From Candidatus Yanofskyibacteriota bacterium (lineage in GTDB: Bacteria > Patescibacteriota > Minisyncoccia > JACQLN01): 51,301 bases of DNA. The DNA lies in the NCBI GenBank assembly GCA_943359335.1, contig CALRHC010000005.1:1-51301 (forward strand), written 5' to 3'. This document shows positions 51,167-51,301 of this stretch, one piece after another. Position numbers and translations under genes: made by a program. The first letter of the stretch is position 1; every line of letters starts with the position of its first letter. The notes below the pieces were generated by a model that worked only from the letters and a program-made list of their open reading frames with translations, did no database searches and was not told where the DNA came from.

Positions 51167-51301
51167 ATGAAGATACTAGCTATAGAAACCAGCTGCGATG
51201 AAACAGGTATAGCCCTAATTGAGTCCGATTCCAAAGGCAAGGCTCGTCCCGTTAGAGGCAGAGGGTCGCTGCGAGCCCTCGCGGCCTCTAACGGGATTAA
51301 A
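51167..51301 (+). CDS. tsaD: tRNA threonylcarbamoyladenosine biosynthesis protein TsaD (partial)
   Basis: MKILAIETSCDETGIALIE signature N-terminus. Confidence 0.93.
   Translation, partial: MKILAIETSCDETGIALIESDSKGKARPVRGRGSLRALAASNGIK
51248..51295. repeat. 48-bp palindromic element in frame within tsaD
   Basis: CCCGTTAGAGGC...GCCTCTAACGGG; encodes PVRGRGSLRALAASNG. Confidence 0.85.

What the first reader, a model, noticed from the sequence alone, without database searches (positions are those of the whole stretch)
51248..51295. In-frame palindromic element inside tsaD, resembling Rickettsia palindromic elements
After MKILAIETSCDETGIALIE the reading frame runs through a 48-bp near-palindrome (CCCGTTAGAGGC..GCCTCTAACGGG) that begins on a codon boundary and is exactly 16 codons long, encoding PVRGRGSLRALAASNG. 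TsaD proteins normally have a short loop at this place. The 12-bp ends match the intergenic element at 3696-3811 apart from one A/G. Selfish palindromes inserted into coding genes are described in Rickettsia (RPE); I know of none established in CPR.
Basis: partly seen in the sequence, partly recalled or inferred. Interest (0 to 1): 0.8.

Follow-up and report, generated by a model that had tools for sequence, protein, structure and literature searches.

The report
In-frame mobile palindrome inside tsaD
A 48-base palindromic piece of DNA has inserted in frame into an essential tRNA-modification gene of a tiny uncultivated bacterium, and it belongs to a large, apparently undescribed family of miniature mobile hairpins that sits inside housekeeping genes and exactly at start codons in many bacterial phyla.

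Summary
Bases 51248-51295 are a 48-bp palindrome in frame in tsaD. The contig ends 6 bp later because of the repeat. Contig C11 overlaps it by exactly 63 bp and continues an intact 363-aa TsaD; the same protein sits on a 242-kb contig elsewhere. Relatives lack the 18-aa insert, which the structure model places as a disordered surface turn; two related TsaDs carry a shorter version at the same spot.

It is one copy of a dispersed family, 26 to ~200 bp long, with ends YCCCGTTAGAR...YTCTAACGGGR. The window's genome has ten copies, and the pattern occurs in Patescibacteria, Omnitrophota, Planctomycetota, Nitrospirota, Desulfobacterota and others. Intact copies are flanked by 4-bp direct repeats, 145 of 146 fitting YNNR, and are sometimes nested. 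So these are MITE-like transposable elements. All 14 clear intragenic copies are in frame and stop-free (RsmH, TrpS, IF-2, PolA and others). Copies with T/A ends often abut ATG start codons.

It works like Rickettsia palindromic elements but is not one. No autonomous copy was found. Transposases of the families tested are absent from most element-rich genomes, so the mobiliser is unknown. Not found in the literature searched.

The parts
51167..51301 (+). 5' part of tsaD (MKILAIETSCDETGIALIESDSKGKA...), open to the contig end; continues on contig C11
   Evidence: joined 363-aa protein passes TIGR03723 (370.5 bits, cut-off 296.1)
51243..51246 (.). CTCG, place of the left 4-bp target-site copy; does not match the right side (TTAA)
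   Evidence: exception to the family rule
51247..51296 (.). element including its outermost T...A pair
   Evidence: outer pair is C/G or T/A and complementary in 94% of 252 elements
51248..51295 (+). 48-bp palindromic element in frame in tsaD, encodes PVRGRGSLRALAASNG
   Evidence: 47/48 identical to C8:21830-21877 of the same genome in opposite orientation
51297..51300 (.). TTAA, place of the right 4-bp target-site copy
   Evidence: ancestral ATTAA in relative G002
3691..3694 (.). TTCA, left target-site duplication of the second window element
3696..3811 (-). 116-bp member of the same family, inserted in the ATGAA start of the minus-strand gene 3144-3695. The leader frame MNPVRSRDRNELAVRIFILSNIINQIILQIKIIDRDLLLTG from the duplicated ATG ends in a TGA overlapping the gene's ATG
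3813..3816 (.). TTCA, right target-site duplication of the second window element

Best explanation
The feature is one copy of a non-autonomous, MITE-class transposable element with ends YCCCGTTAGAR...YTCTAACGGGR. It inserts by a staggered cut that duplicates 4 bp of a YNNR target. This copy landed in the beta-turn between the first two strands of TsaD. Its length is a multiple of three, and it sits in one of the two stop-free frames of its ends (PVR...SNG; the other is PLE...LTG, and the third contains TAG). It is therefore most likely translated as an 18-residue disordered surface loop that does not stop TsaD from folding. Shown: family membership, dispersal, target duplications across the family, lineage specificity, intact reading frame. 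Inferred: that the peptide is made, that TsaD remains active, and that insertion uses a transposase-like enzyme (not identified).
For: Ten copies in the window's genome; the C8 copy is 47/48 identical, inverted and intergenic. Same-type 48-bp elements occur in Nomurabacteria, Giovannonibacteria, Azambacteria and others, in other genes or between genes. In 218 elements, 135 have a full 4-bp duplication against 17.7 expected after shuffling flanks; 145 of 146 fully duplicated targets fit YNNR. Nested copies have their own duplications. TsaD relatives without the insert read ESDSRGKINVL / ESDKKNGIQVL where G000 reads ESDSKGK[ARPVRGRGSLRALAASNG]IKIL. Of 16 copies with near-intact duplications inside long empty-site ORFs, 14 are in frame and stop-free; the other 2 are likely spurious ORFs. 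Hosts are identified by profile: RsmH, TrpS, IF-2, PheT, RluF-like, LepA, PolA, EtfB, DnaE and others. The AlphaFold2 model of the joined TsaD has mean pLDDT 92.7, with only residues 24-40 below 50, between strands 12-20 and 44-53.
Against: The tsaD copy itself lacks a matching duplication (CTCG / TTAA), so it has diverged or recombined since insertion. No autonomous relative or mobilising enzyme was found. No transcript or protein data were available. Two related TsaDs (P0003, P0004) carry a 27-bp form at the same spot while a tree interleaves insert-free relatives, so the history needs either losses or recurrence.
Confidence: 0.85

Rival explanations
1. A REP-type hairpin mobilised by a RAYT (HUH Y1) transposase through single-stranded hairpin DNA.
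For: Size (26-50 bp) and hairpin form overlap with REPs; intragenic REPs are known (PMC3733652). About half of the class genomes hold Y1_Tnp genes.
Against: No Y1_Tnp in the window's genome or in element-rich G011, G024, G033, G045, G054, G058. No GTAG tag (2 of 262). Both ends are symmetric and flanked by 4-bp duplications, which IS200/IS605-type insertion does not make (general knowledge).
Confidence: 0.05
2. The insert is not translated: it is spliced out or bypassed by the ribosome (like mitochondrial byp elements or an intron).
For: Strong hairpins of 27-55 nt resemble translational bypass elements in size (general knowledge).
Against: All 14 clear intragenic copies have lengths divisible by 3 and no stop in the used frame, a constraint needed only if they are translated.
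Confidence: 0.04
3. Insertion is caused not by a dedicated transposase but by a host enzyme that cuts with a 4-nt stagger (for example a type II topoisomerase), acting on hairpin DNA.
For: No DDE_Tnp_1, DDE_5, IS1380-type transposase or rve integrase in the window's genome, in the complete genome G060 or in G073. 26-33-bp copies with intact duplications look too short for a normal paired-end complex. The family crosses many phyla.
Against: Absolute conservation of CCCGTTAGA implies a sequence-specific enzyme. Only five transposase families were tested. The mobiliser may come from another replicon or have been lost. The short copies may be in-place contractions of longer ones.
Confidence: 0.12
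4. Assembly or binning artefact at a contig end.
For: The element sits at the very end of the contig.
Against: Exact, unique 63-bp overlap with C11 restores an intact TsaD. The identical full protein is on a 242-kb contig. Internal copies occur in many independent assemblies, including a complete chromosome. Empty sites restore conserved protein sequence.
Confidence: 0.01

Closest known systems
Rickettsia palindromic elements (RPE)
   Same: Palindromic, dispersed, inserted in frame in many unrelated protein-coding genes as extra peptide; no known mobiliser (RPE description from PMC10969869)
   Different: RPE are about 150 bp, described from Rickettsia, and end in CGTC (PMC3733652); this family has CCCGTTAGA ends, 26-200 bp, 4-bp YNNR duplications, many phyla, and start-codon insertions
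Miniature inverted-repeat transposable elements (MITE)
   Same: Short, no ORF for a transposase, terminal inverted repeats, target-site duplication, nesting
   Different: No parental insertion sequence found; sizes down to 26-27 bp; ends reach across phyla
GTAG REPs / RAYT and CGTC REPs
   Same: 20-40 bp hairpins in high copy, sometimes inside genes; CGTC REPs also lack a known transposase (PMC3733652)
   Different: No GTAG or CGTC tag (2 and 6 of 262); symmetric ends; real 4-bp duplications; no Y1_Tnp in several rich genomes

Membership tests
MITE | terminal inverted repeats | tested here: met
   identical 9-bp ends by search design; pairs at positions 10-12 still 96%, 83%, 74% complementary with several pair types, low from position 13
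MITE | fixed-length target-site duplication | tested here: met
   4 bp, 135/218 full matches vs 17.7 expected; 145/146 YNNR; not met in the tsaD copy itself
MITE | dispersed copies, no own transposase | tested here: met
MITE | related autonomous element with the same ends | tested here: inconclusive
   none in 2.06 Mb searched, including the whole window genome; other genomes not searched whole
Rickettsia palindromic element | in-frame insertion in unrelated protein-coding genes | tested here: met
Rickettsia palindromic element | CGTC at one end (as reported in PMC3733652) | tested here: not met
   6 of 262 have CGTC near an end
Rickettsia palindromic element | sequence similarity to RPE consensus families | not tested
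   no RPE consensus available among the tools
GTAG REP / RAYT system | GTAG tag at one end | tested here: not met
   2 of 262
GTAG REP / RAYT system | Y1_Tnp (RAYT) in the genome | tested here: not met
   absent from G000, G011, G024, G033, G045, G054, G058
Translational bypass element / intron | insertion need not keep frame and may hold stops | tested here: not met
   14 of 14 clear intragenic copies in frame and open

The most novel reading that the evidence does not exclude
A previously unrecognised class of self-contained mobile hairpins, as short as 26-27 bp, spreads through many bacterial phyla by a 4-nt staggered insertion that no resident transposase explains, adding peptides to essential proteins and resetting start codons.
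Probability: 0.35. Interest if true: 0.9.

Novelty: new variant of a known kind. Interest (0 to 1): 0.78.

Why it matters
Protein-coding palindromes have been described from Rickettsia; here the phenomenon appears across Patescibacteria, Omnitrophota, Planctomycetota, Nitrospirota, Desulfobacterota and others, in core translation and replication genes, with a clear insertion signature. That makes the open questions (what moves them, whether the peptides are made, how proteins tolerate them) testable. The family also breaks assemblies and adds unexplained loops to proteins in genome databases. Copies of 26-33 bp with intact target duplications would be among the smallest known mobile DNAs if they move as such.

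Tried and rejected
Mobiliser: Y1_Tnp, DDE_Tnp_1, rve, DDE_5 and DDE_Tnp_1_4 were searched in element-rich genomes; none is shared. A long version of the element carrying a transposase: the candidates of 0.6-2.9 kb all had a near partner at one end, and those inspected were two short elements flanking ordinary genes such as pilin or rnf genes. Known plasmids and phages: no real match. Literature: no paper on bacterial repeats of this kind among the listed papers with CCCGTTAGA (20 of 36 listed) or TCTAACGGG (all 39 listed), and none joining MITE or palindromic element with CPR, Patescibacteria or Omnitrophica. Integron attC was considered from the GTTAGA core and rejected: the half-sites face the wrong way and attC insertion leaves no duplication (reasoning only). 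A Pfam scan of all G000 proteins through an alignment was prepared and dropped because the tool reports only the 25 commonest families.

Full report
WHAT IS THERE. The window is the whole of contig C5 of a 591,612-bp, 17-contig genome. The 48-bp palindrome stands at 51248-51295 in the frame that starts at ATG 51167. The contig ends 6 bp later. Contig C11 begins with the same 63 bases (AAGGCTCGT + element + ATTAAA), the only such overlap among all contig ends, and carries on the same frame to a normal stop. The joined protein of 363 aa passes the TsaD equivalog model TIGR03723 with 370.5 bits against a cut-off of 296.1. An identical 363-aa protein is on a 242-kb contig in the protein database. 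So the contig break is most likely an effect of the repeat, and tsaD is intact.

IT IS AN INSERTION. The same-genus relatives G002 and G003 read ESDSRGKINVLTNL and ESDKKNGIQVLANL; this genome reads ESDSKGK-ARPVRGRGSLRALAASNG-IKILANL. Of the 60 best database TsaDs aligned, only P0003 and P0004 also occupy the site, with TRPVRSGGSNG, a 27-bp form of the element. A tree without the insert columns puts insert-free sequences between the carriers: either one old insertion, shortened in one line and lost in others, or two insertions. The model built from 48 sequences folds with mean pLDDT 92.7; residues 24-40 alone form a stretch below 50, in the turn between strands 12-20 and 44-53.

IT IS A FAMILY. 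The genome holds ten elements with these ends. In the class, 25 of 60 genomes match the 12-mer CCCGTTAGARGC, mostly as inward-facing pairs, and the non-complemented control stays near zero. A phylum-wide draw finds the strict short pattern in 10 of 147 genomes. One Deltaproteobacterium holds about 100 copies.

HOW IT INSERTS. In 218 elements the base just outside the CCC/GGG ends is C..G (138) or T..A (56), and beyond it lies a 4-bp direct repeat: 135 full matches against 17.7 after shuffling the flanks; no other length stands out. Of 146 full duplications in a later set, 145 fit YNNR. Elements sit inside other elements with their own duplications. Variation at arm positions 10-12 is paired on both sides, so the hairpin is kept as well as the ends. 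This is the signature of staggered-cut transposition. The tsaD copy has CTCG on the left and TTAA on the right, so its own duplication is no longer intact; relative G002 has ATTAA at the site.

GENES STAY IN FRAME. For elements with at least 3 of 4 duplicated bases, the empty site was rebuilt in a script. Sixteen lie in empty-site ORFs of at least 180 aa. Fourteen of these have length divisible by 3 and stay open; the other two appear to be spurious ORFs. Among copies outside such ORFs 61 of 148 are divisible by 3. Host genes identified by profile include trpS, infB, pheT, an rluF-like gene, lepA, polA, etfB, dnaE, ychF, a RACo gene, a tyrosine recombinase and prepilins; some of these come from the wider list. 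In this same genome a 69-bp element sits in frame in rsmH. The RluF-like copy of a Nomurabacterium encodes PVRGRGSLRALATSNG, almost the tsaD peptide.

START CODONS. Half of the T/A-ended elements (32 of 64) end directly at the ATG of an ORF of at least 90 codons, against 9 of 168 C/G-ended ones at a GTG. The target is then TGAA or similar inside ATGAA, and the duplication recreates the start codon. The other element of this window (3696-3811) is such a case: a 41-codon leader frame from the duplicated ATG ends in a TGA overlapping the gene's ATG. Whether the leader couples translation is not known.

WHAT MOVES IT. Not found. Y1_Tnp is missing from this genome and several of the richest ones. 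DDE_Tnp_1, rve, DDE_5 and DDE_Tnp_1_4 are missing from this genome, the complete genome G060 and G073. No autonomous element was seen in 2.06 Mb. Copies of 26-33 bp, several with perfect duplications, are hard to reconcile with a normal two-ended transpososome; they may be contracted forms, as P0003/P0004 hint, or evidence for another mechanism. The nine 27-bp copies of G166 have different stems and loops, which fits contraction of different parents at least as well as copying.

VERDICT. Observation confirmed, interpretation supported. The element works like an RPE or an intragenic MITE. It is not an RPE by the end tag, and its parent transposase is missing. Filed as a new variant of a known kind. 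The literature test is limited to the open-licence papers held.

Noticed in passing
window 3696-3811; list: T/A-ended elements abut ATG start codons (rplI-like starts in two genomes of different families, topA, typA, leuS, ssb, ruvX, rnf genes; names read from the N-termini); in four cases a leader frame ends in TGA overlapping the gene's ATG.
   Followed up: partly
L212:6740-7980, L129, L134, L174, L153, L214: Prepilin signal peptides of Omnitrophota, Planctomycetota, Riflebacteria and others carry in-frame copies (TPLE...SLTGFTLIELL); L212 has two identical copies in neighbouring pilin genes.
   Followed up: partly
L229:5568-5636 (contig C14 of the same genome): 69-bp element in frame in rsmH directly after the GIDLD motif.
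   Followed up: yes
G067 (L290-L301): A 29-bp element is part of a longer repeat with conserved flanks (TGCGTTTAC...GTGAATCTGCG) copied at least twelve times.
   Followed up: no
L084 about 190-215 (tsaD on C11): Tandem AGCTGGAAGCTGGAAGCT repeat encodes KAGSWKLEA in another variable loop of the same TsaD.
   Followed up: no
G166 contigs: Nine elements of exactly 27 bp, all with different stem or loop letters inside the same CCCGTTAGA ends.
   Followed up: no
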